Positions 2,096 through 12,381 of a stretch of DNA of 51,773 nt are shown piece after piece. Within the stretch, counting starts at the first letter, position 1. Each line of letters starts with the position of its first letter. The notes below the pieces were generated by a model. That model was not told the origin of the DNA. It saw only the letters and a program-made list of their open reading frames with translations, and did not search any database. The stretch is from contig QZKS01000042.1 in NCBI GenBank assembly GCA_003599865.1, positions 1 to 51,773 of the forward strand. Reading direction: 5' to 3'. The stretch comes from Desulfobacteraceae bacterium (GTDB taxonomy: Bacteria; Desulfobacterota; Desulfobacteria; Desulfobacterales; SURF-7). Position numbers and translations under genes: made by a program.

Positions 2096-2293
2096 TCAAG
2101 GTTTCTTTTTTTCGGAACCCTTATCATCATCTGACTCTTGTTTAATTAATTCAGCAATCTCTTTTGCAATCTGTACATCTTTGGATGCTTTAGCCAGTTT
2201 TTTGAGATCAATGGAGGTAAGAGGACCCGTTGATGGTTTGATTGATTTTCGCATGGTTTTCAAAATATCATTTATATGTTCATCTGTTGTCAT
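2096..2293 (-). CDS. Small hypothetical protein, 65 residues
   Basis: I do not recognise this gene. From ATG 2293 it encodes 65 residues: MTTDEHINDILKTMRKSIKP, a predicted helical middle (SIDLKKLAKASKDVQIAKEI) and a very charged tail (QESDDDKGSEKKKP). It has no membrane segment and no cysteines. The frame stays open for 25 more codons upstream (to 2368), but the shorter start has GGA about 11 bases upstream and gives a typical small acidic/basic cytoplasmic protein. It is convergent with the rluD-like gene, which helps explain why the frame is not a shadow of another gene. It may be a lineage-specific protein. Confidence 0.5.
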   Translation of the reverse strand: MTTDEHINDILKTMRKSIKPSTGPLTSIDLKKLAKASKDVQIAKEIAELIKQESDDDKGSEKKKP

Positions 2294-2448
2294 AACAAGA
2301 TCATTCCTTTGGGTTTCGGATGTGTCTTTTATTACTCCTATAATAAAACAGACCGTAGAATTTGGCAATAGGCCAACCGATCCGTGCAGTACATGAATCG
2401 CTTTTTCAAGTTGGACATCTATAGAATAACGAACTGTTTTCCATTAGA

Positions 2449-2516: not shown

Positions 2517-4604
2517 TCAAGCCGCATGCCGGTCTTTATTGTAACAGAGACGGCAACAGTTAAGACAGCGATTGGATTCGCGAATAGCTTCATCTTCAGG
2601 AAGCACCAGATCCGCTTCATCGAAAGTTTTAATCCGAACATCCACAGGAAGCTCCGGCATTTCGGCACGTTTTTGCTTAATGACGCCGGGTACGGAGTCA
2701 AATATGGTTCCATCGATGTTCTTTTTAAAGAGGCTGTTTCTAACCGGTTCCACCGGTTGCCCGGAAAGATATTGATGAATCGATCTGGCGGCTCTTCTTC
2801 CACCGCCGATACCTTCCACGACAAGAGAAGCTCCGGTCGCAGAATCCCCGCCGGTGAATATGTAAGGTATATTGGTCTGGAGGGTTTCAGGATTTACGGA
2901 ATCAATGGTATCCCAGCGTGTTGTTGCAAGCTCCGCAATTCGTTTTCCATTTTCCTTAAAGGATACATCCGGTCCCTGACCAATAGCGGTGACAAGCATA
3001 TCAACATCCAGAACCGTTTCAGACCCTTCAACCGGAACCGGTCGTCTTCTGCCGCTGGCATCCGGTTCGCCCAGCTCCATTTTTAAATATTCAAGGCCGA
3101 CGACCCTTCCTTCTTCGTTTCCAATAACCCGGTTTGGTGCAGCAAGAAAATGGAATTTGACGCCCTCATGCTCGGCAGCCTCGATTTCAACCATATTGGC
3201 CGGCATTTCATTTCTGGTTCTGCGATACACAATGGATACCTCTTCAGCGCCAAGCCGGATAAGTGTCCGCACACAATCAATAGCGGTATTCCCACCGCCG
3301 ACAACGGCACATTTTTTCCCAATGGGTATCTGAAGCCTGCTGTCCCCCTGTTGTGTTCTTGCAAATTTTGTCAGGAAATCAATCCCGGTGTAACAGTTTT
3401 GGAGATTTTCTCCTTCAATTTTCATGCTGTAATCTTTCCATGCACCGACTCCCATGAAAATGGCGTCATAGCCGGCCGCTATCAATGATCCAAGGTCGAA
3501 ATCATATCCGAATTTGACGTTTGTTTTGGCCTCGATACCCAGGTTCAGAATTCCATCGATTTCCCATTGAAGCACTTTTTTGGGAAGTCGATATTCCGGT
3601 ATGCCGTACCGGATCATGCCGCCGAGTTTAGGCATCATATCAAAAATGGTTACAGCATGTCCGAGACGCCGGAGAAAATAAGCACAGGTAAGACCCGCCG
3701 GCCCGCCGCCGATTACAGCGACCTTCCTACCCGTATCCGGAGCACAGGGAATGGGCAGCCGTTTCCCGGAATTCATTTCATAATCTGCTGCAAATCGTTT
3801 TAACTGATTGATGGAAACCGGTTCATCCTCAATGCCTCGTCTGCACTTGTCTTCACAGGGATGCGGGCATACACGGCCACAGGAAAGGAGGAGGGGATTT
3901 CTTTCGCGAATGGTATTGACAGCTCCCTCATAATCGCCTTGTTTAATTTGCTGAATATATTTGGGGATATTAATTTCGGCAGGGCAGGTCTGCTGACAGG
4001 GAGCAAGGGCGGCATCGTCCTGGTTGAAGCTCAGCAGCCTATCCGACATGGTCCGGATTTTGATGATATTTTTGGGGCAGACTTGCCGACATGCGCCACA
4101 GCCGACACATTTGGATTCATCGACGACCGGGTAACCGTTTTCACCAAGAACCAGTGCATCAAACTTGCAGGCCTTAACGCAATCCCCAAGACCGATGCAT
4201 CCGATGCTGCATACCCGTTTTCCGCCGTAAAAAGCGGCCATTGCCCGGCAGGAGGAAACTCCTGAATAGTCATATTTATCATCCGCCCGATTCCCACCCA
4301 GGCATTCATTCTGGGAAAGGATGGGTTCTGCCGTGCCGGGGTCCATCCCCATAACCGCAGCGACCGCTGCAGCAGATTCCGGTCCGGCAACAATGCAGAC
4401 GCTGGGGCCGGCATGGCCTTTCACAACCGCATCCGCAGCGGCTGAACATCCGGCAAAACCGCATCCGCCGCAGTTTGCACCGGCCATCAGATTTTCAATG
4501 GCGGCGATTCTTGGATCTTCATACACATAAAAAACCTTGGATGCGATGCTTAAAACCGCTCCACAAATAATTCCAAGAAACAGCATAAAAAGGAGAGCTG
4601 TCAC
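2517..4604 (-). CDS. rnfB: RnfB fused to a GltD/NfnB-like NAD(P)H:flavin oxidoreductase
   Basis: The 695-residue product is more than three times the usual RnfB length. Residues 1-25 are the membrane anchor. C45, C48, C53 and C70 form the N-terminal [4Fe-4S] site, and two ferredoxin clusters follow (C132/C136/C142/C146 and C166/C169/C172/C176). This RnfB part normally takes electrons from reduced ferredoxin. From about residue 195 a second module begins: Fer4_20-type cysteines C203, C207, C242, C246, C250 and C254; an FAD motif VIGGGPAGLTCAYFL (297-311); an NAD(P) motif VVGGGNTAIDCVRTLIRLG (434-452) followed by VYRRTRNEMPA; and the FAD-closing IFTGGDSATGA (582-592). The C-terminus carries RCLNCCRLC. 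This is the complete architecture of glutamate-synthase small-subunit/NfnB-type flavoproteins. The start is GTG, preceded by a strong AGGAGG. It is the last gene of the rnf operon, 127 bases after rnfA, with a terminator-like hairpin between them. The frame is continuous, so the fusion is real. Confidence 0.95.
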   Translation of the reverse strand: MTALLFMLFLGIICGAVLSIASKVFYVYEDPRIAAIENLMAGANCGGCGFAGCSAAADAVVKGHAGPSVCIVAGPESAAAVAAVMGMDPGTAEPILSQNECLGGNRADDKYDYSGVSSCRAMAAFYGGKRVCSIGCIGLGDCVKACKFDALVLGENGYPVVDESKCVGCGACRQVCPKNIIKIRTMSDRLLSFNQDDAALAPCQQTCPAEINIPKYIQQIKQGDYEGAVNTIRERNPLLLSCGRVCPHPCEDKCRRGIEDEPVSINQLKRFAADYEMNSGKRLPIPCAPDTGRKVAVIGGGPAGLTCAYFLRRLGHAVTIFDMMPKLGGMIRYGIPEYRLPKKVLQWEIDGILNLGIEAKTNVKFGYDFDLGSLIAAGYDAIFMGVGAWKDYSMKIEGENLQNCYTGIDFLTKFARTQQGDSRLQIPIGKKCAVVGGGNTAIDCVRTLIRLGAEEVSIVYRRTRNEMPANMVEIEAAEHEGVKFHFLAAPNRVIGNEEGRVVGLEYLKMELGEPDASGRRRPVPVEGSETVLDVDMLVTAIGQGPDVSFKENGKRIAELATTRWDTIDSVNPETLQTNIPYIFTGGDSATGASLVVEGIGGGRRAARSIHQYLSGQPVEPVRNSLFKKNIDGTIFDSVPGVIKQKRAEMPELPVDVRIKTFDEADLVLPEDEAIRESNRCLNCCRLCYNKDRHAA

Positions 4605-4640
4605 AATATCCTCCTGAATGGTTAAATAAAACTATTTTCC

Positions 4641-4693
4641 AAAAAAAAAGGGATATACATTGGAATGATCGAACCTGAATGAATGCATATCCC
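4641..4693 (-). terminator. Terminator-like hairpin between rnfA and rnfB
   Basis: On the minus strand GGGATATGCAT (4693-4683) pairs with ATGTATATCCC (4660-4650) with one wobble pair and a 22-base loop, and is followed at once by nine T (4649-4641). It has the form of an intrinsic terminator but lies inside the operon, between rnfA and rnfB. It may be a partial terminator that lowers expression of the fused RnfB, or a riboregulated attenuator. Confidence 0.7.
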
Positions 4694-4731
4694 GTGAAAT
4701 CGTGTTCCTGTTACACAGTCCTCAATCTGAT

Positions 4732-5304
4732 TTAAACCATGCCTTTAAATGCATAGAACGCAAGTGCGATCATTCCGGCGGTCACCAGTCCGATAGAGGT
4801 GTCCTGAAGCGGCTTCGGAACCCTTGCCAGAAGAATTTTTTCCCGTACGCCTGCAAACAGGATCAGTGCCAGACCAAAACCGGCTGCGTAGGCAAAAGAG
4901 GCGACAAGCGACTGCATAAAGGTAAACTCTTTATCAATATTCAGCACACAAACACCTAAAACAGCACAGTTTGTCGTAATCAGCGGAAGAAAGATACCAA
5001 GACCGGCATACAACGCCGGGATGGATTTTTTCAGAAACATCTCGACAAACTGTACCAGAGAAGCGATGACAACAATGAAAGCGATGGTTCGCAGGTATAC
5101 CAGGTCATATTTTACCAGAATAAATATGTGAACAATCCAAGTGATGGTTCCCGCAAGCACCAGAACAAAAATGACAGCCATAGCCATGCCGATCGCTGTT
5201 TCCATTTTTTTGGATGTCCCGAGGAAAGGGCAGTTTCCTAAGAACTGGGCAAGAAGGATGTTATTTACGAAAATACAAGCAATGATTAATTCAAAATATC
5301 CCAT
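4732..5304 (-). CDS. rnfA: Rnf complex membrane subunit RnfA
   Basis: The 190-residue protein has six hydrophobic segments, beginning MGYFELIIACIFVNNILLAQ. It shows the family motifs FLGNCPFLGTSKK and LPLITTNCAVLGVCV. Each contains the cysteine that, with its RnfE partners, holds the membrane-embedded iron-sulfur cluster seen in Rnf/Nqr structures (family knowledge). RnfA and RnfE are homologous inverted-topology partners. The start ATG has AGGAGA eight bases upstream, and the gene follows rnfE by 14 bases. Length and motifs are normal. Confidence 0.97.
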   Translation of the reverse strand: MGYFELIIACIFVNNILLAQFLGNCPFLGTSKKMETAIGMAMAVIFVLVLAGTITWIVHIFILVKYDLVYLRTIAFIVVIASLVQFVEMFLKKSIPALYAGLGIFLPLITTNCAVLGVCVLNIDKEFTFMQSLVASFAYAAGFGLALILFAGVREKILLARVPKPLQDTSIGLVTAGMIALAFYAFKGMV

Positions 5305-5318
5305 TATAAGTTCTCCTG

Positions 5319-5930
5319 TTAGTCACCAATCGCATTGATGGCGCAAAGCATGAGTCCCAATCCGATAAAGGCACCAGGCGCCTGAACCATAAAAGTAAAA
5401 GGCTGAAAAGAAGGGAAAACTGAGGCCAGGTTAAAACCAAGATCACCCCAGATTGTCAGCGTCCCATTTCCCAGTATTTCTCGCACCGCCCCAAGAGCCC
5501 CCAGTGAAAGAGTGTATCCAACTCCGATACCGAGTCCATCTGCTGTGGAAGGAAGTATACCATTTTTAGAGGCAAAGGCTTCGGCACGCCCGAGAACAAT
5601 ACAGTTCACTACGATCAGAGGAATAAAAACGCCTAGTGTTTGAAAGAGTTGATAGGTATATGCCTGCATCAGGTGTTCGACGATAATAACAAAGGTTGCG
5701 ATAATGATGATAAAACAGGCAATTCGAACCTTGGCCGGTATAATATTACGCAACAGGGATATCAGGATATTGGATCCTGCAAGAACAAAGGTCGTTGCCA
5801 ATCCCATCCCCAGACCATTTTCCACAGAAGTCGTTACACCCAGTGTCGGGCAAAGACCGAGCACTAGTCTGAAGGGTGGGATCTCTTGCCATAATCCTTT
5901 TGTGAATTCCTGTACAATAGACTTCGCCAT
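5319..5930 (-). CDS. rnfE: Rnf complex membrane subunit RnfE
   Basis: The 203-residue integral membrane protein begins with the amphipathic MAKSIVQEFTKGLWQEIPPF typical of RnfE. It carries VLGLCPTLGVTTSVENGLGM and IPLIVVNCIVLGRAEAFASK, whose cysteines match the cluster ligands expected opposite those of RnfA. Together RnfA and RnfE carry electrons across the membrane between the cytoplasmic and periplasmic redox centres. AGGGAGA lies six bases before the start, and rnfG ends 18 bases upstream. Nothing is unusual in this subunit. Confidence 0.97.
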   Translation of the reverse strand: MAKSIVQEFTKGLWQEIPPFRLVLGLCPTLGVTTSVENGLGMGLATTFVLAGSNILISLLRNIIPAKVRIACFIIIIATFVIIVEHLMQAYTYQLFQTLGVFIPLIVVNCIVLGRAEAFASKNGILPSTADGLGIGVGYTLSLGALGAVREILGNGTLTIWGDLGFNLASVFPSFQPFTFMVQAPGAFIGLGLMLCAINAIGD

Positions 5931-5948
5931 AGTATTCTCCCTACCAAA

Positions 5949-6536
5949 TTAGAACGCTTTTATCTGTTCCGCAAGCTGAGGTTTGATTTTTTTATAGGTT
6001 TCCAAAGACTTCCCAACAGTATCGCAGACTGCCCGGGAGGTGATGGTCGCACCGCTGATGGCATTGATACTTCCTCCGTCATTGGTAACCTTGATGCTGT
6101 CGTTTGTGGAAAGGCTTTTGAACTGAGCTGAAAAACTCGGATCTTCTTTTGCTTTTGCTCCCAGTCCCGGTGTTTCACTATGGGTGGTAACGGAAACACC
6201 AACCAGTTTGTCCTCGTCCAGGTTCACACCGATCATGACGCCGATATCACCGCCAAAACCTTTTCCAAAACTCTCAAAGGCAATCGTGTTGGCCTTGCCA
6301 TCAATTTTACCGACAAAAAAGCTTCTTTCCACATCGCCGTCCTGGATTTTAAACCGGTCGGTAATGGGATCGTTGGTGGAGCCTTTCAAGATGGTTTTGA
6401 TTGCCGGTCCTTTGACAAATTTGAGTTGCTGGTTTTCAATCTGAGCTTTGGTTCCGTCATGTACGGATGCAAGCAACCCTCCGGATACAGAGCTTAGGAT
6501 TGTCAGAACAACAACCATTTTGATCATATCATTCAT
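5949..6536 (-). CDS. rnfG: Rnf complex FMN-binding subunit RnfG
   Basis: The 195-residue protein has one N-terminal transmembrane helix (residues 4-24) and a periplasmic FMN-binding domain. The covalent flavinylation motif SGATITS is intact at residues 161-167, with T164 the expected FMN attachment site modified by ApbE. ETPGLGAKA at 121-129 is the other conserved element. Its ATG overlaps the rnfD stop as ATGA, so the two are translationally coupled. In cytochrome-linked Rnf complexes this periplasmic flavin is the likely contact point for a cytochrome c (inference from position). Confidence 0.96.
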   Translation of the reverse strand: MNDMIKMVVVLTILSSVSGGLLASVHDGTKAQIENQQLKFVKGPAIKTILKGSTNDPITDRFKIQDGDVERSFFVGKIDGKANTIAFESFGKGFGGDIGVMIGVNLDEDKLVGVSVTTHSETPGLGAKAKEDPSFSAQFKSLSTNDSIKVTNDGGSINAISGATITSRAVCDTVGKSLETYKKIKPQLAEQIKAF

Positions 6537-7501
6537 TTTTCTACAACCTTTCCGAGCGCTTTGGGTCTGATTTTATCAATAAGAGGATTGGCAAGGTTCA
6601 TCAATAAAATGGACAGAACCACGCCGTCCACATATGCACCAATGTTTCGAATCAGGATTGTCATGATACCGCAGCCGGCACCATAAATCAGCATGGGTAT
6701 AAAATTAACCGGGGAGGAGGCGTCTTCGGTTGCGAGATAAAAGGCACCAATCAGTGTATATCCCGTAAAAAGGTGGAAGATCGGTCCGGCATATTTGCCT
6801 TCTTCACCGAACATGGCAAAGAGAAGAGCGGTAACAAAAACACCTCCCAGAAAGGAAACCGAGATTTCCCATCGAATAAATCCCCGTGCAATCAGATATA
6901 GTCCTCCGATAATGATGGCAATTCCGCAGGTAGACCCGATACCGCCGGTCTGTCTGCCCATGAGAAGGTCAGTCATGGAAAAGGAAGAGATCGCGTCCGG
7001 TCCAAAGGCCTTGAGGGATGATAGGGGATATGCCATTGTAAAATCGAAATCATAGGATAACAGGGCTTCGTTAAAATCGAATATCCCTTTCCAGGAAAGG
7101 GAAAGAATGGCCATGGCAACCATAACCGGATTGAAAGGATTGGCTCCCAGCCCTCCGAAAATCTGTTTTCCAATCACAACCGCAATCAGGGTTCCCACAA
7201 GAACCGTCCACCAGGGTGTGGTTGCCGGGATCATCATGGCCAGTAGCAGTCCGATCAAGGCGGCATTGCCATCTCCAATGGAAACCGGCAGTTTTGCAAT
7301 CTTATTGACAACCATTTCCCAGATCATGGCAGTTGCAATCGAGAAGCAGACAACCGCAACCGCGCGTCCGCCATATTGGATAAAACCGGGTATCACGGCC
7401 GGTATGGCTGCCAGCATGATATGGTAGTGCCTGGTAGAGAGTGAACTCCCGTCATGCCAGAAGGGCGCATGTGAAACAACAAATTTTTTCTGGTTAAACA
7501 T
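6533..7501 (-). CDS. rnfD: Rnf complex membrane subunit RnfD
   Basis: From ATG 7501 the product is 322 residues with about nine or ten hydrophobic helices. It matches RnfD/NqrB through SPHAPFWHDG-like VVSHAPFWHDG near the N-terminus, FGGLGANPFNPVMVAMA and IGGLYLIARGFIRWEISVSF. I chose this start because a perfect GGAGG lies six bases upstream and the ATG overlaps the rnfC stop as ATGTTTAA. An upstream in-frame start at 7546 would add 15 residues inside rnfC. The segment that should contain the FMN threonine (consensus DAxSGAT) reads DAISSFS at residues 169-175, so the usual flavinylation threonine is serine 175 here. Confidence 0.95.
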   Translation of the reverse strand: MFNQKKFVVSHAPFWHDGSSLSTRHYHIMLAAIPAVIPGFIQYGGRAVAVVCFSIATAMIWEMVVNKIAKLPVSIGDGNAALIGLLLAMMIPATTPWWTVLVGTLIAVVIGKQIFGGLGANPFNPVMVAMAILSLSWKGIFDFNEALLSYDFDFTMAYPLSSLKAFGPDAISSFSMTDLLMGRQTGGIGSTCGIAIIIGGLYLIARGFIRWEISVSFLGGVFVTALLFAMFGEEGKYAGPIFHLFTGYTLIGAFYLATEDASSPVNFIPMLIYGAGCGIMTILIRNIGAYVDGVVLSILLMNLANPLIDKIRPKALGKVVEK

Positions 7502-8777
7502 TCTCGGCCTCCGCGGATTGAATTCTGGCGAGCTCGAATTTCGCAAGCCTTATGTATTGGAAGATCGGTATTTTGGCGGTACAGACGTAACTGCATAAAC
7601 CGCATTCAATGCAGGAGAACAGATCGTAGTTATCAGCCGCATTATCATATTGGCCTGCCTCAAGAAAACGAACCAGCATGCTCACCTGAACTTTTGCCGG
7701 ACAGATTCGGATACATTCGCCGCAGTTAATGCAGGCGCTGTTTGAAACATAGGGTATCACGGAACGATCCTGGATAATCACGGCATCTGTATCCGGACAG
7801 ACCGGATGGTCTTCCGTATATGCGGACAGACCGGTCATGGGGCCACCGATAATGATCCGGTCACCATCTTCCGGCCGGATGTTCAGTGCGGAAAAAATAT
7901 CCTTGAAAGGTGTTCCGATCTGTGCAGAAATCAGTTTCTTGGTTCCGATTTTGTCGATGACGGTCAGGATTTTCCGGGTAGGGATTTCCTTCTTTTCATA
8001 GGCGTTTCCAAGAGCGGCCAAAGCTTCGGCACTCACTACCGCGATTCCATGCTTCTCAAATGGATCGCCTGCGGGAAGTTCTTTTCCAAGGATATCTTTT
8101 AATACCAGATGCGGTGATGCGGAAGGATAGGCCGGTGGAACGGTTTTGACGGTTGCGCCGGTCGAGATGGCGTCCTGGGACAAGGCTTCCGGAACAACTA
8201 TAATAAAGGTATCGAGATTGGTAATATCTTTCAGTATCCGGATACCTTTTTTGATCGATGAAGCAGACGTTTTTACAATCTGCTGCCGTGTCTGTACCAG
8301 CAGATCCGTATCCATACCGCTTATCACAAGCTTTGTTACTTTCGGATCTGTTTGGGAAAGGATGGATACCGGGAAGGCACCCGGCAAATGAGCCAGAAAG
8401 TCGGTTGTAACCTGGAAGGATGGTGTTTTTGCAGCCTCGGCAAACTGCGTATCCGATTCCTGCCGGTCATCCTTTTTGATGACAACAGAAGTCATCTGCA
8501 TCCCAAAATTCCCGGCATAGGGGGATATGGATGCAATTGTTCCGGAAACAGAGGAGATGATATAATCATCGCTTCCTTTCATGATGGATATTTTTTGCCC
8601 GGCTTTTACCTTGTCTCCAACCTGAAAAAGGATTTTATCTTTTTTGTCGAAAACAGTATGAGAAAATAGTTGAATGGTTTTGGATGCGGTTATTTCCCGG
8701 GGTGCCGGGGTTTTTGCATCGATAATATCGTATTCAAGCCTGGGTTTGAGCAAACCAAAGAATGATTTCTTAATCAT
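7494..8777 (-). CDS. rnfC: Rnf complex subunit RnfC, with degenerate NADH/FMN site
   Basis: The 427-residue protein has the RnfC plan: an N-terminal barrel-sandwich region (VGDKVKAGQKI, VSGTIASISPY), a Rossmann-like middle, a SLBB-like region around IGTPFKDIFSAL and IIIGGPMTGLSA, and two C-terminal [4Fe-4S] motifs (C349/C352/C355/C359 and C389/C392/C395/C399). In canonical RnfC the middle domain carries GLGGAGFPT followed by NAAECEP, which bind FMN and NADH. The equivalent stretches here are HLPGAFPVSI (130-139) and ISGMDTDLLV (152-161), so most of the glycines and the acidic motif are gone. This subunit probably does not oxidise or reduce NAD(H). It follows the cytochrome gene by 12 bases with a GGAAGG-like ribosome site. 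Confidence 0.95.
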   Translation of the reverse strand: MIKKSFFGLLKPRLEYDIIDAKTPAPREITASKTIQLFSHTVFDKKDKILFQVGDKVKAGQKISIMKGSDDYIISSVSGTIASISPYAGNFGMQMTSVVIKKDDRQESDTQFAEAAKTPSFQVTTDFLAHLPGAFPVSILSQTDPKVTKLVISGMDTDLLVQTRQQIVKTSASSIKKGIRILKDITNLDTFIIVVPEALSQDAISTGATVKTVPPAYPSASPHLVLKDILGKELPAGDPFEKHGIAVVSAEALAALGNAYEKKEIPTRKILTVIDKIGTKKLISAQIGTPFKDIFSALNIRPEDGDRIIIGGPMTGLSAYTEDHPVCPDTDAVIIQDRSVIPYVSNSACINCGECIRICPAKVQVSMLVRFLEAGQYDNAADNYDLFSCIECGLCSYVCTAKIPIFQYIRLAKFELARIQSAEAENV

Positions 8778-8789
8778 AATACCTTCCCT

Positions 8790-9359
8790 TTACATGACAT
8801 GGCAGGATGAACATTCAACCGGACCGGAACCGTATTCTTTATGGCAGTCAATGCACTGCGTATGGAATGCGTCGGATCTTTTTTGAAAATTCATAGTTTT
8901 TTGTTGGCCTTCAATCTCATCCGGTTCGTGGCATTCGTTGCAAGCCTCCGGAGTGGAACCATCTTCTGTTTTTTGATGGCAATCCGCACAGGCACGGAAA
9001 TCTTCTCCTTCAACGGTTTTCGGATGATGTTCCTCAATATTGCCGACGGAGTCATGGCACTCCTGGCAGTTTTGGGGGACTGTCTTGGGCGGTTCTGCTG
9101 TGTGGCAATCACCGCATGCTTTAAAATTATCCTCATCGTCTTCATGGTGATGGTGGCAGTCAATACAAGCGGCACCATAACCGGTCTCAGCCCGATGCAC
9201 CTTATGGGTAAACAGCACGTTTCCCGCAGATGTCTTAAACATCTTTCTGACAGGATCTTCCGGGGTTTCAACAGGAAAGGCAGCATAGCAGATTCCACCC
9301 ACAAGAAGCAAAATAACCGTCAGGCAGTAAGCCAGCTTCAGTTCGTTATTTGAAGTCAT
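8790..9359 (-). CDS. Exported heptahaem cytochrome c, first gene of the rnf operon
   Basis: From ATG 9359 the product is 189 residues. Residues 8-27 form a signal peptide or membrane anchor (LAYCLTVILLLVGGICYAAF). Seven CxxCH haem sites follow, with cysteine pairs at 65/68, 82/85, 98/101, 124/127, 140/143, 169/172 and 183/186. Extra histidines (CHHHHED, EEHHPK) can serve as distal ligands, in the style of class III and c7-like cytochromes. It lies 12 bases before rnfC, so it belongs to the operon. Rnf loci with an adjacent multihaem cytochrome are known in sulfate reducers and in Methanosarcina acetivorans (MmcA), where the cytochrome exchanges electrons with the complex outside the membrane. 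An upstream in-frame start at 9413 would place 18 residues before the signal peptide; AAGGAA precedes 9359. Confidence 0.93.
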   Translation of the reverse strand: MTSNNELKLAYCLTVILLLVGGICYAAFPVETPEDPVRKMFKTSAGNVLFTHKVHRAETGYGAACIDCHHHHEDDEDNFKACGDCHTAEPPKTVPQNCQECHDSVGNIEEHHPKTVEGEDFRACADCHQKTEDGSTPEACNECHEPDEIEGQQKTMNFQKRSDAFHTQCIDCHKEYGSGPVECSSCHVM

Positions 9360-9551: not shown

Positions 9552-11435
9552 TCAGTTTTGATACATGTTGTCAAGAATCAATCGGATGCTTTTTTCCCGA
9601 TCATCCCTGATGATTTGAAATTGCAGTGCGGTTCCTTTTTCTTGCCGGAGCAGATTTTTGATCGATATCAGGCTGGAAAGATTGTCAAATTTCAGGTGAT
9701 CGATTTTTTCTATCACATCTCCTTCCCGAAAACCGGCCTTTTCCCCTGGTGATCCGGGGGAAATAAACACAATGTATGGATTTCCATGCCCGGTTCTCCC
9801 GATCTGGATACCGCTGTTGTCATGGGGAAAAATCGTATGAAAATCATCTCCCGGTTCCAATATTACCTTTTGGTTTTCATAATCCATATAAAGAGTAAAA
9901 TGCCGAAGGACCGAATTCCCGATCGTTCCAACGCATTCGGCAGAGGATGTCGCACCGGTCCCCTGATCATCCGGGATGGATATCAGGGGATTTTGAAGGA
10001 TATGATTTCCAATGCGAAGGTGATCAAACCGGATTGTCTTTTCCATATATTCACCCCCAAGGCCTCTGCTGATATGAGAAACCCCTTTTTTTTGAAACAG
10101 GTTATTTGCCTTTGCAAACGGGAAATGAAAGGATGTGTTGAATGATCCGATATCCAGGGACCATTTTCCGGAATAGATGCCGTCCACCATCATGGGAAGG
10201 GTGAAGATTCCGTTTTTCAGAGGAGCATCGATGACAGTACCTTTTCCGGTATAGACAAAACCTTCCGGGTCATACAAGGATAGCCGTCTTGCTGTGTAAT
10301 CGATTTTCACGACAAACCGGGAAAGAAAATCATAGCCCAGAATACCATAACAGGTTGGTTCATTGGTTTTTTCTGCAAGGCCTTGAAAAGAGAAAATGGT
10401 TTGTTTTCCAAACGTGACGCCCGGCAGGCTGAATCCGGGCAGCCTGACAAATTCCAGGTCAAAGTTCGCTCCAAATCCATGACCCCTGATTTGGCCTTCC
10501 GGCCGGATTCCCATGTCCAATGCAAATTTCTGATCCATGAGCGACATGGAAGCCCCGCTGTCCAGAAGCCACATTCGGGTATGGTTTCCGGTTTTGACTT
10601 CCAGATAGATTAAGTTTTCAACCAGTTGAAAAGGGATATTTTCCGAGCGGTTCCCCTCCGTGAATTCATAATCACGGGATGAATCCGGAGGCACCGGAAA
10701 AAGGGCAGGATCAATGGGGGCATTGATGATTTGTTTTTCGATCCGGTTGATTTCCTTTTTCTCACGAGGAAAGATCCGGGATTCATCATAAAAAGGGAAC
10801 AGCAGGCCGTCTTCATTTCGATAGTCCGAATATAGGGTATGGGTCTCGATATCCGGAAGCCGGCTGACGGATTTCACCAGAAGAAAGGATTTCCGGTCAA
10901 TGAAATACCACATCACGTCCTCATTCAATCGATTCCTGATTTTTATGGCATGGCAAAGGTGCTCGTTGACCGGCTGGATGCCTTCGTATGATATGGTAAA
11001 TAAGGACGATTTCGGGTTGAGATGGTCGAAGTGTTCCATTTCGAGGGCAATTTTTCGACGTTTCAGGGTCTGTTCATCGCGTAAAATAACCACCTTGCCG
11101 TTCGGGTCTTTTTTCCATGATACCTGCCCGTCATCACCCTGAATCTGCTGAAGGATCGCAAAATCCTCTTCCAGCCGATATTGCAAAGGCTTCTTTTCCC
11201 ACGACCGGAAGGTTCCTTTCAGCCCGTCATACTCGGTGCTCCCCTCCGTATAAACGGTTGTAATGGCTTTCAACCTGTCAAGGCCTCCGATGGCTTCATA
11301 ATATTGATGAAGAATGGCGTATGGGTCGGGAGGAGTGGTCGTCGATTCACCATGAACCGGTAGAATGAAAAATAGAAAAATCACAGGCAGCAGGATCTGC
11401 TTCATCTGCAATCGGAACTGTTTACTCCGGATCAT
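9552..11435 (-). CDS. Exported retropepsin-like aspartic protease with C-terminal PDZ domain
   Basis: The product is 627 residues. It starts with a signal peptide (KQILLPVIFLFFILPVHGES). Residues 35-230 resemble outer-membrane-lipoprotein-sorting-like folds (YYEAIGGLDRLKAITTVYTEG). Two gag-aspartyl-protease units follow: WLLDSGASMSLMD gives the catalytic DSG, and KWSLDIGSFNTSF gives a D-I-G in the second unit. The C-terminus is a PDZ domain (VFISPGSPGEKAGFREGDVI) like those that bind peptide termini. The second unit's DIG departs from DTG/DSG, so activity may depend on one site or on dimerisation. ATG 11435 is chosen because AGGAC lies upstream and it overlaps the previous stop by 14 bases, giving translational coupling with the thioredoxin-HEAT gene. 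It probably acts in the periplasm; its substrate is unknown. Confidence 0.8.
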   Translation of the reverse strand: MIRSKQFRLQMKQILLPVIFLFFILPVHGESTTTPPDPYAILHQYYEAIGGLDRLKAITTVYTEGSTEYDGLKGTFRSWEKKPLQYRLEEDFAILQQIQGDDGQVSWKKDPNGKVVILRDEQTLKRRKIALEMEHFDHLNPKSSLFTISYEGIQPVNEHLCHAIKIRNRLNEDVMWYFIDRKSFLLVKSVSRLPDIETHTLYSDYRNEDGLLFPFYDESRIFPREKKEINRIEKQIINAPIDPALFPVPPDSSRDYEFTEGNRSENIPFQLVENLIYLEVKTGNHTRMWLLDSGASMSLMDQKFALDMGIRPEGQIRGHGFGANFDLEFVRLPGFSLPGVTFGKQTIFSFQGLAEKTNEPTCYGILGYDFLSRFVVKIDYTARRLSLYDPEGFVYTGKGTVIDAPLKNGIFTLPMMVDGIYSGKWSLDIGSFNTSFHFPFAKANNLFQKKGVSHISRGLGGEYMEKTIRFDHLRIGNHILQNPLISIPDDQGTGATSSAECVGTIGNSVLRHFTLYMDYENQKVILEPGDDFHTIFPHDNSGIQIGRTGHGNPYIVFISPGSPGEKAGFREGDVIEKIDHLKFDNLSSLISIKNLLRQEKGTALQFQIIRDDREKSIRLILDNMYQN

Positions 11436-12381
11436 GTCTTGTCCTGATGCTGTCGATCGCCTCTTGGGTGATCGTGCTGATTTCATTGTCGGAACTGTCT
11501 TCCAGCAGGCCTTCAAGTGTTGCAATGGTCCGGGAGTCTCCGGCCTCTCCCAGGAGATAAATCATATCGCCTTTTACGGAATTATCCATGAACGGGAAAC
11601 GATCCACAACCGGTTTGATCATGATTGCCGCCAGTTCCGGAGAAGCATCGATAATCCTTTCCATGACAACCATGGCGCCCAGTCGAACAGGCCATTTTTC
11701 GTGAACAAGAAGGTCGATAAAGGCGGGGAAAATCGTGTTGTGTTGAATCATCATATCGGCGACCTTGGCGGCATCTCCGGCATGGATGATGTTTTTCAAC
11801 GTATCCGTGCTGAGGTCGGAAGGATTCTGATCGGCGATGAGTTCGGCCACTTCTTTGATTTGAAAATTGCCGGTCCAGCGGAATGTATTGAAAAGAAGCG
11901 TCGGCGCCGACCGGATGCCGTCTTTTTTTGCCTGATCCGGAAAAAGAGTGCCATCGATAATGGTGATCCGAATCCGGTCACCGGCTTGCACAAACGGCAG
12001 AATCTTTTCAACCGCAGCCGGACAGAAGGGACATTGCGGAGTGATATACAGTGTCAGGGAGACGGGAACCGTTATCGATTTCATTTTTTCAAGGACGGGA
12101 TTCGTCGGGGCCTGGATGAAAGACAGCGCTTTTAAAAAGGGTTCCAGTTCCGGCCCGAGCGGAACCGCATGATAGGTGATCCGGTCATGGATGGTCATTC
12201 CCGGCAGTTCATTTTCTGGCTGTATATCTTGAATGGTTATGGAAAGGACGGAAGCGATGGTTTCGCAGAAATTCCTGATGTCAGGATTCAGATGGCTGTT
12301 GGAAACCACCATCCGGATGCTTTCGGGGTTTGGGATTCTTGTTTTCCACTGGGAAACGTGATTCAATTCATGTGGTGTCAT
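11422..12381 (-). CDS. Tandem thioredoxin-fold protein with C-terminal HEAT repeats
   Basis: The 319-residue protein lacks a signal peptide. Residues 20-170 look like the two-thioredoxin-fold unit of AhpF N-termini and protein disulfide oxidoreductases: the first fold has no CxxC, while the second has TPQCPFCPAAVEKILPFV with C117 and C120 as the redox pair and the cis-proline loop RSAPTLLF at 157-164. Residues 195-319 are helical HEAT-type repeats (WPVRLGAMVVMERII, NSVKGDMIYLLGEAGD, TIATLEGLLEDSSDNE), suited to protein binding. It lies between DAHP synthase (51 bases upstream) and the protease gene, which it overlaps. It probably reduces disulfides on a partner held by the HEAT part; the partner is unknown. 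Confidence 0.82.
   Translation of the reverse strand: MTPHELNHVSQWKTRIPNPESIRMVVSNSHLNPDIRNFCETIASVLSITIQDIQPENELPGMTIHDRITYHAVPLGPELEPFLKALSFIQAPTNPVLEKMKSITVPVSLTLYITPQCPFCPAAVEKILPFVQAGDRIRITIIDGTLFPDQAKKDGIRSAPTLLFNTFRWTGNFQIKEVAELIADQNPSDLSTDTLKNIIHAGDAAKVADMMIQHNTIFPAFIDLLVHEKWPVRLGAMVVMERIIDASPELAAIMIKPVVDRFPFMDNSVKGDMIYLLGEAGDSRTIATLEGLLEDSSDNEISTITQEAIDSIRTRHDPE

What the first reader, a model, noticed from the sequence alone, without database searches (positions are those of the whole stretch)
2517..9359. A re-wired Rnf complex: NAD(P)H port apparently moved from RnfC to an RnfB fusion, with a heptahaem cytochrome
Seen directly: one operon encodes a seven-haem cytochrome c, RnfC without the usual glycine-rich FMN/NADH motifs, RnfD with an altered flavinylation site, normal RnfG/E/A, and RnfB fused to a complete GltD/NfnB-like FAD and NAD(P) module. 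Known: canonical Rnf passes electrons from ferredoxin (RnfB) across the membrane to NADH bound at RnfC, and a cytochrome-linked Rnf in Methanosarcina works without NAD. Inference: here ferredoxin and pyridine nucleotide may both meet RnfB, perhaps with flavin-based bifurcation or confurcation in the fused module, while the cytochrome gives a periplasmic outlet. I know of cytochrome-linked rnf loci in sulfate reducers, but not of a described mechanism for this combination.
Basis: partly seen in the sequence, partly recalled or inferred. Interest (0 to 1): 0.85.

Follow-up and report, generated by a model that had tools for sequence, protein, structure and literature searches.

The report
Sulfate reducers' rewired Rnf ion pump
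A membrane ion pump of a sulfate-reducing bacterium has lost the parts that normally return electrons to NAD+ inside the cell and carries a built-in NADPH-type module and a partner cytochrome, so it probably sends electrons outward instead; this gene layout was already described, but how it works was not.

Summary
The operon cytochrome-rnfCDGEAB encodes a seven-haem cytochrome, an RnfC without the FMN/NADH site and a 695-aa RnfB fused to a GltD-like FAD/NAD(P) module. The arrangement is not new: it is the "Tol2-type"/"Rnf2" complex of Desulfobacteraceae (PMC5109826, PMC11887813; passages read), whose mechanism the former leaves open.

Across 177 complete operons: (1) all 88 fused operons lack the RnfC FMN/NADH blocks, but so do 18 unfused ones, so loss does not require the fusion. 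(2) RnfD has lost its FMN pocket: Thr153, Arg130 and Glu185 (C. tetanomorphum numbers) are all present in 77 of 77 operons without this rewiring, while Arg130 is absent in 100 of 100 others. My ten paper searches showed no report of this. (3) The module matches the NADPH modules of StnABC/NfnABC; Lys269 (107 of 107) replaces the Glu of bifurcating NfnB, which speaks against bifurcation. In 15 of 107 the NADP site is degenerate.

Best reading (inferred): NADPH and/or ferredoxin feed RnfB, electrons cross once through RnfA/E to RnfG and leave to periplasmic cytochromes, coupled to ion export; the return leg is disabled.

The parts
8793..9359 (-). heptahaem c-type cytochrome (7 CxxCH) with N-terminal hydrophobic export segment; class III / c7 related
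   Evidence: 7 CxxCH counted and Met start at 9359; Cytochrom_CIII 1.3e-12
7494..8777 (-). RnfC homologue: barrel-sandwich domain and two 4Fe-4S motifs kept, FMN/NADH site lost
   Evidence: model pLDDT 89.3, Z 34.7 to RnfC 8rbm, Z 27.4 to NqrA 8acy
8358..8393 (-). RnfC residues 129-140 where canonical RnfC has the glycine-rich loop GGAxFPTHVK; the loop is shortened and altered
   Evidence: alignment; columns counted; coordinates
7581..7733 (-). two 4Fe-4S cluster motifs of RnfC (CINCGECIRICP, CIECGLCSYVC)
   Evidence: all eight ligand Cys invariant in 34 fused-type RnfC; coordinates
6533..7501 (-). RnfD (Met at 7501 preferred to the TTG at 7546)
   Evidence: NQR2_RnfD_RnfE 1.5e-91; GGAGG before 7501
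7016..7036 (-). RnfD MAYPLSS: Tyr173 in place of the flavinylated Thr153
7112..7141 (-). RnfD NPFNPVMVAM: Asn124 equivalent kept, Met145 in place of Arg130
6926..6943 (-). RnfD GIGSTC: Ser205 in place of Glu185 (third FMN-pocket residue)
5949..6536 (-). RnfG with flavinylation motif SGATITS at 6036-6056; RnfG_DVU2794 family
   Evidence: NF045876 253 bits against cut-off 205
5319..5930 (-). RnfE, cluster Cys motifs LGLCPT and NCIVLG present
   Evidence: TIGR01948 over cut-off
4732..5304 (-). RnfA, cluster Cys motifs LGNCPF and NCAVLG present
   Evidence: TIGR01943 over cut-off
2517..4604 (-). RnfB-GltD fusion, 695 aa, GTG start after CAGGAGG
4035..4604 (-). RnfB part (residues 1-190): membrane helix, ANCGGCGFAGC cluster domain, two 4Fe-4S ferredoxin motifs
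   Evidence: matches RnfB 7zc6_B and 9eri_B; Cys 45, 48, 53, 70, 132-176 in 107 of 107
2520..4019 (-). GltD-like module (residues 196-695): two 4Fe-4S sites, FAD site, NADP-type site
3789..3803 (-). LKRFA with Lys269, aligned with StnC Lys170 (Glu in NfnB)
   Evidence: K in 107 of 107; alignment; role in StnC from PMC10482914 section 9
3690..3710 (-). FAD dinucleotide motif GGGPAGL
3198..3299 (-). NAD(P) motif GGGNTAIDC and VYRRTRNEMPA; the YRR pair suggests NADPH
   Evidence: the link of YRR to NADPH is recalled knowledge of this fold
2544..2570 (-). C-terminal RCLNCCRLC: Cys680, 683, 687 complete the module's Fe-S sites
   Evidence: 106 of 107 each; aligned within the fold of 9bov_A and 8oh5_C

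Best explanation
The operon encodes an Rnf-type ion pump turned from a ferredoxin:NAD+ loop into an outward, one-crossing electron path. Electrons enter at RnfB, from NADPH at the fused FAD module and probably from ferredoxin at the RnfB clusters, run down the Fe-S chain to RnfA/E (where Na+ or H+ is moved) and reach the covalent FMN of RnfG in the periplasm. From there they leave to the operon's heptahaem cytochrome and the periplasmic cytochrome pool instead of returning through RnfD and RnfC to NAD+. Shown by sequence: the fusion with intact FAD, NADP-type and Fe-S residues in the window; RnfG and RnfA/E cofactor residues kept; RnfC FMN/NADH site lost; RnfD FMN pocket lost. Inferred: NADPH as donor, cytochrome as acceptor, direction, ion and coupling. 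The path may run in reverse (periplasmic electrons plus ion inflow making NADPH or reduced ferredoxin).
For: RnfD FMN-pocket residues Thr153, Arg130, Glu185 are all present in 71 of 71 canonical and 6 of 6 G-E-A-B-C-D operons; Arg130 in 0 of the other 100, Thr153 in 4 of 100, Glu185 in 4 of 100; of 88 operons with a cytochrome of 3 or more haems near rnfC, 0 keep Thr153 or Arg130; no canonical operon (0 of 71) has such a cytochrome (numbering fixed on 7zc6_D). RnfC blocks lost in 106 of 106 non-canonical operons. RnfG flavin motif kept in 84 of 88 fused operons. Module Cys 203, 207, 246, 250, 254 in 107 of 107 and 242, 680, 683, 687 in 106 of 107; NADP motif intact in 92 of 107, window included. 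Structural matches to the NADPH modules of NfnABC and StnABC. M. acetivorans Rnf, cytochrome-linked, is reported not to use NAD(P). Nqr is a precedent for a nucleotide port on the RnfB side. RnfD-like subunits of Nqr/Rnf-like complexes proposed to send electrons one way outward also lack the Thr. The same genome keeps a canonical Rnf on contig C78, so the two need not be redundant.
Against: RnfC keeps all eight cluster Cys, which a dead return leg would not need. Riboflavin-site residues of RnfD are largely kept (Asn124 in 73 of 88 fused, Asp/Glu248 in 88 of 88). Ten fused operons have no cytochrome within 3.5 kb, yet lack Arg130 and Glu185. In D. alaskensis rnf mutants fail on several donors while dhcA, the cytochrome gene, mattered in only one pyruvate fermentation experiment. 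15 of 107 fused RnfB have a degenerate NADP site, ten of them with a 4-haem and one with an 8-haem cytochrome. Losing Thr153 rules out the covalent link there, not a loosely bound flavin. Fusion, RnfC loss and RnfD loss are inherited together in few events, so their association is weak evidence of function.
Confidence: 0.5

Rival explanations
1. The U-shaped path still works: electrons return from RnfG through RnfD riboflavin to the RnfC clusters and reduce an unidentified cytoplasmic one-electron acceptor or a membrane quinone; the cytochrome is accessory.
For: RnfC cluster Cys invariant; riboflavin-site residues of RnfD largely kept; ten fused operons without nearby cytochrome; dhcA nearly dispensable in D. 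alaskensis; authors of PMC5109826 already asked for an unknown RnfC partner.
Against: All three FMN-D pocket residues gone in 84 of 88 fused operons and two of three in the other four, so the relay between RnfG and riboflavin is missing or weakened; no partner gene is conserved in the operon.
Confidence: 0.22
2. One reading: the fused module bifurcates or confurcates electrons between ferredoxin and pyridine nucleotide, as NfnB does.
For: NfnB-type fold with Z about 30 to 5jfc_L, FAD and NADP motifs, both carriers could meet on one protein.
Against: Lys269 in 107 of 107 in place of the NfnB Glu, as in StnC whose FAD is reported as non-bifurcating; nearest structures are the NADPH modules of StnABC/NfnABC; no NfnA gene in the operon; NADP site degenerate in 15 of 107. 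Lys alone does not prove the absence of bifurcation.
Confidence: 0.1
3. The module only makes RnfB a ferredoxin:NADP+ reductase or a Fe-S scaffold at the membrane, uncoupled from pumping, while ferredoxin alone drives the pump.
For: Unfused members of the same clade (12 operons) do without the module; 15 of 107 modules lost the NADP motif but kept Fe-S Cys and Lys269; an orphan fused RnfB stands outside any rnf operon in this genome.
Against: NADP and FAD motifs intact in 92 of 107, which implies selection; a direct ferredoxin-NADPH short circuit would waste ion-motive force.
Confidence: 0.13

Closest known systems
Rnf2 / Tol2-type Rnf of Desulfobacteraceae (Desulfobacula toluolica, Desulfococcus multivorans, Desulfobacterium autotrophicum)
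   Same: Large RnfB of about 700 aa with nucleotide-binding domain, RnfC without NADH-oxidoreductase and SLBB domains, cytochrome in the cluster, a separate canonical Rnf in the same genome
   Different: Nothing tested sets the window apart. The RnfD pocket loss and the Stn-like Lys are not mentioned in the passages I read
Canonical Rnf (Acetobacterium woodii, Clostridium tetanomorphum, Azotobacter vinelandii)
   Same: Six subunits, RnfA/E cluster Cys, RnfG FMN motif, RnfB N-terminal clusters, RnfC fold and its two 4Fe-4S motifs
   Different: RnfC FMN/NADH site and RnfD FMN pocket absent; RnfB carries a 500-residue NAD(P)/FAD module; operon cytochrome
Cytochrome-linked Rnf of Methanosarcina acetivorans
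   Same: Operon cytochrome c with Rnf and, as reported, no use of NAD(P); works-like comparison only
   Different: Its sequences were not compared here; no RnfB nucleotide module is described in the passages read
Na+-NQR (NqrA-F)
   Same: RnfC homologue (NqrA) lost its nucleotide port and a flavoprotein port sits on the RnfB side
   Different: NqrF is FNR-like with 2Fe-2S, not GltD-like; NqrA lost its clusters, here RnfC keeps them; NqrB keeps covalent FMN
StnC and NfnA of StnABC/NfnABC transhydrogenases
   Same: GltD-like NADPH module with Lys near the FAD-proximal cluster and the RCLxC segment at its C-terminal end
   Different: Soluble enzymes with a HydB-like bifurcating partner; here the module is joined to membrane-bound RnfB

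Membership tests
Rnf2 / Tol2-type Rnf (PMC5109826) | RnfB of about 700 aa with NAD-binding sites besides the RnfB Fe-S domains | tested here: met
   695 aa
Rnf2 / Tol2-type Rnf (PMC5109826) | RnfC lacking NADH-oxidoreductase (Complex1_51K) and SLBB domains | tested here: met
   Complex1_51K below cut-off, SLBB absent; motifs gone
Rnf2 / Tol2-type Rnf (PMC5109826) | cytochrome gene in the cluster | tested here: met
   7 CxxCH
Canonical ferredoxin:NAD+ Rnf | six subunits A, B, C, D, E, G | tested here: met
Canonical ferredoxin:NAD+ Rnf | RnfC FMN/NADH site | tested here: not met
Canonical ferredoxin:NAD+ Rnf | RnfD covalent FMN (Thr153 of 7zc6_D) | tested here: not met
   Tyr173
Canonical ferredoxin:NAD+ Rnf | ferredoxin:NAD+ activity coupled to ion transport | not testable with these tools
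   needs biochemistry
Bifurcating Nfn (NfnAB) | Glu at the FAD-proximal cluster of NfnB | tested here: not met
   Lys269
Bifurcating Nfn (NfnAB) | NfnA partner with 2Fe-2S and FAD encoded in the operon | tested here: not met
   no such gene among the ORFs around the operon; presence elsewhere in the genome not tested
StnC/NfnA-type NADPH module | GltD fold with FAD and NADP motifs, two Fe-S sites, conserved Lys | tested here: met
StnC/NfnA-type NADPH module | NADPH oxidation | not testable with these tools
   needs an assay
Na+-NQR | NqrF subunit (FNR-like, 2Fe-2S) in the operon | tested here: not met
   absent; a separate nqr cluster lies on contig C8
Methanosarcina-type cytochrome-linked Rnf | homology of cytochrome, RnfC and RnfD to the archaeal subunits | not tested
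   no named Methanosarcina sequence was fetched; NCBIfam Methano models score below their cut-offs

The most novel reading that the evidence does not exclude
A whole clade of sulfate reducers' Rnf complexes, fused and unfused and probably including the Desulfovibrio complex generally drawn as ferredoxin:NAD+ oxidoreductase, does not return electrons to the cytoplasm at all: with the RnfD FMN relay and the RnfC FMN/NADH site both dismantled, it is a half-loop pump that exports electrons to periplasmic cytochromes, and in Desulfobacterales NADPH and ferredoxin share one entry port on RnfB.
Probability: 0.4. Interest if true: 0.8.

Novelty: new member of a known kind. Interest (0 to 1): 0.6.

Why it matters
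PMC11887813 places Rnf2 in the core genome of Desulfobacteraceae, the main complete oxidisers of marine sediments, and reports it as abundant and constitutive, yet no reaction has been shown. If the outward path is right, the cell's NADPH and ferredoxin would be linked by an ion pump straight to the periplasmic cytochrome pool, which would change energy budgets for sulfate reducers and their syntrophic partners. The RnfD pocket gives a simple cofactor test: count flavins in purified RnfD and RnfC. It would also show that nucleotide ports have been moved at least twice on the same pump (Nqr and Rnf2), and it warns that the label 'ferredoxin:NAD+ oxidoreductase' should not be given from rnf genes alone.

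Tried and rejected
Rejected: (a) a strict port swap, because 12 unfused operons of the same clade and 6 of another lineage also lack the RnfC site; (b) a swapped polarity with NADPH at RnfB and ferredoxin at RnfC, because downhill electron flow from ferredoxin to NADP+ would then go with ion inflow and waste energy (reasoning, no call); (c) two apparent fused-plus-canonical cases (L109, L114), which are 600-aa neighbouring proteins with 66 and 83 bits; (d) L115 as unfused: its rnfB frame is broken in the assembly with a module fragment next to it, counted as fused; (e) L217 as FMN-less: GGAMFPT missed by my pattern, counted as canonical. Dropped before counting: L238 and L239 (repeat fetches of L140 and L112), operons cut by contig ends, and RnfC-like hits of 200 bits or less.

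Led nowhere: viral contigs gave no relative; plasmids gave no record covering 80% of RnfB (0 of 137); a 90-aa ORF downstream of rnfB has no Pfam match and no relative among the loci. Coordinates of the models were not available, so cluster geometry was not measured. No named Desulfovibrio or Methanosarcina sequence was compared. The Desulfobacula toluolica Tol2 paper, Pereira 2011 and Biegel 2011 were not read (the last two are not held), so the RnfD point may be in print there or in supplements, which I could not open.
Full report
What is there. On the minus strand, 9359 to 2517, lie seven genes: a cytochrome with seven CxxCH motifs, rnfC, rnfD, rnfG, rnfE, rnfA and rnfB. RnfG, A, E and D reach the cut-offs of their NCBIfam models; RnfC does not (197.3 against 245.95 bits), and RnfB passes only the general rnfB model. 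RnfB is 695 aa: residues 1-190 match RnfB of C. tetanomorphum and A. woodii, residues 184-695 match the NADPH subunits of NfnABC and StnABC, then NfnB and GltD. The closest named relatives of the fusion are Desulfobacterales, with Desulfosudis oleivorans at 90%, so the window is probably from that group (inference).

It is already described. PMC5109826 (passages) reports a 'Tol2-type' Rnf with an RnfB of about 700 aa holding NAD+-binding sites and an RnfC without NADH-oxidoreductase and ligand-binding domains, says a different mode of action was suggested and awaits verification, and notes that D. multivorans carries it as rnf2 beside a canonical rnf1, similar to D. autotrophicum. PMC11887813 (passages) calls it Rnf2, puts it in the Desulfobacteraceae core genome and reports constitutive formation.

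Survey. From named genomes I took 80 loci found with the fused RnfB as query (fused by construction). From a sample of 394 Desulfobacterota genomes I fetched 158 stretches around RnfG hits and selected RnfC hits. Of these, with the window, 177 complete operons remain after dropping two repeat fetches, cut operons and weak RnfC-like hits: 88 fused (58 from named genomes, 29 from the sample, 1 window), 71 canonical, and 18 unfused without the RnfC site: 4 with a 10-haem cytochrome (all one unnamed genus), 8 from two families (6 with a 4-haem cytochrome), and 6 with the order G-E-A-B-C-D from three families. Merging operons 97% or more alike leaves 171. In the sample, 111 genomes hold complete operons: 63 canonical only, 22 fused only, 8 both (the window's genome among them), 18 the other kinds.

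RnfC. Five blocks near-invariant in canonical RnfC (GGAxFPTHVK, ECEPYLT, ENK, YPQGxEKQL, LPxxxG...N.GT) are kept in full in 67 to 71 of 71 canonical and in 0 of 106 other operons; the first 4Fe-4S motif is kept in 106 of 106, and all eight cluster Cys are invariant in 34 fused-type RnfC. The model (pLDDT 89.3) is still an RnfC fold (Z 34.7 to 8rbm, 34.5 to NADH-bound 9eri, 27.4 to NqrA 8acy).

RnfD. PMC9588780 (passages) names Thr153 (covalent FMN), Arg130 and Glu185 (beside its ring), and Asn124 and Asp248 (riboflavin and Na+). Alignment with 7zc6_D fixes these positions. Thr153, Arg130 and Glu185 are all present in 71 of 71 canonical and 6 of 6 G-E-A-B-C-D operons. In the other 100 operons Arg130 occurs in 0, Thr153 in 4 (all fused, none with a cytochrome nearby), Glu185 in 4 (all in the two-family unfused group). 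Asn124 is kept in 73 of 88 fused operons and Asp or Glu 248 in 88 of 88. Of 88 operons with a cytochrome of at least 3 haems within 3.5 kb of rnfC, none keeps Thr153 or Arg130; of 71 canonical ones none has such a cytochrome. RnfG keeps its flavin motif in 84 of 88 fused operons. My searches for a report of this RnfD loss showed none in listings or passages; subscription papers and supplements were out of reach.

The RnfB module. In 107 full-length fusions Cys203, 207, 246, 250 and 254 are invariant and Cys242, 680, 683 and 687 occur in 106, so its two Fe-S sites are under constraint. Lys269 occurs in 107 and aligns with Lys170 of StnC, which sits at the cluster next to a FAD reported as non-bifurcating; NfnB has Glu there (PMC10482914, section 9 read in full). 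The NADP motif with YRR[TS] is intact in 92 of 107; in 15, all in complete operons, it is degenerate. Thus the window's module is a likely one-way NADPH dehydrogenase, but some relatives keep the module without a nucleotide site.

Evolution. A FastTree of joined RnfD, E, A and G unites 90 operons (78 fused with cytochrome, the 4 ten-haem and the 8 two-family unfused ones) with support 1.0; the ten fused operons without cytochrome join them with support of only 0.24. The ten-haem group nests among fused operons (0.81 with one fused operon), so the module was probably lost there, or gained more than once. The G-E-A-B-C-D group stands among canonical operons and lost the RnfC site on its own while keeping the RnfD pocket. 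Hence the traits are few events, not many independent ones, and the link between cytochrome and RnfD loss is suggestive only.

Mechanism. Structures of canonical Rnf give the path ferredoxin, RnfB, RnfA/E, RnfG, RnfD, RnfC, NAD+. Here the first half is intact and two stations of the second half are gone, while a cytochrome is added. The simplest reading is exit at RnfG to the periplasm, as proposed for M. acetivorans, with an added NADPH entrance on RnfB, much as NqrF gave Nqr a port on that side. Against it stand the intact RnfC clusters, the largely kept riboflavin site, ten operons without cytochrome nearby, and the near-absence of a dhcA phenotype in D. alaskensis. In favour, that complex was tried for ferredoxin:NAD+ activity in vesicles without success, and PMC10920352 already lists ferredoxin:cytochrome c3 as one option for D. 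vulgaris.

Setting. The same genome holds a canonical rnf cluster with GGAAFPT on contig C78, an nqr cluster on C8, one ApbE and further class III cytochromes (13 matched stretches).

Noticed in passing
L254:7842-9977 (+), same genome, contig C10: An orphan RnfB-GltD fusion (711 aa, 39% identical to the operon RnfB) lies outside any rnf operon, next to an RseC gene (L254:10006-10458); its NADP motif is degenerate by eye. Full-length paralogues of 37-41% identity occur in 12 of 21 near genomes.
   Followed up: partly
L256:3194-8951 (+), same genome, contig C8: An nqr cluster whose NqrA carries a C-terminal pair of 4Fe-4S motifs like RnfC, an Rnf/Nqr intermediate in looks.
   Followed up: partly
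L153, L156, L159, L163, L169, L170: Six operons in the order G-E-A-B-C-D lost the RnfC FMN/NADH blocks independently but keep the RnfD FMN pocket, have an unfused RnfB and no cytochrome nearby; their acceptor is unknown.
   Followed up: partly
L103, L105, L106, L108, L109, L111-L114, L117, L125, L126, L128, L129, L139: Fifteen fused RnfB whose NADP-binding motif is degenerate although the Fe-S Cys and Lys269 remain; perhaps another donor docks there.
   Followed up: no
window 2096-2368 (-): A 90-aa charged ORF just downstream of rnfB without Pfam match or relatives among the fetched loci.
   Followed up: partly
window 9552-11525 (-): A 657-aa retropepsin-like aspartyl protease with a PDZ domain directly upstream of the operon.
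   Followed up: no
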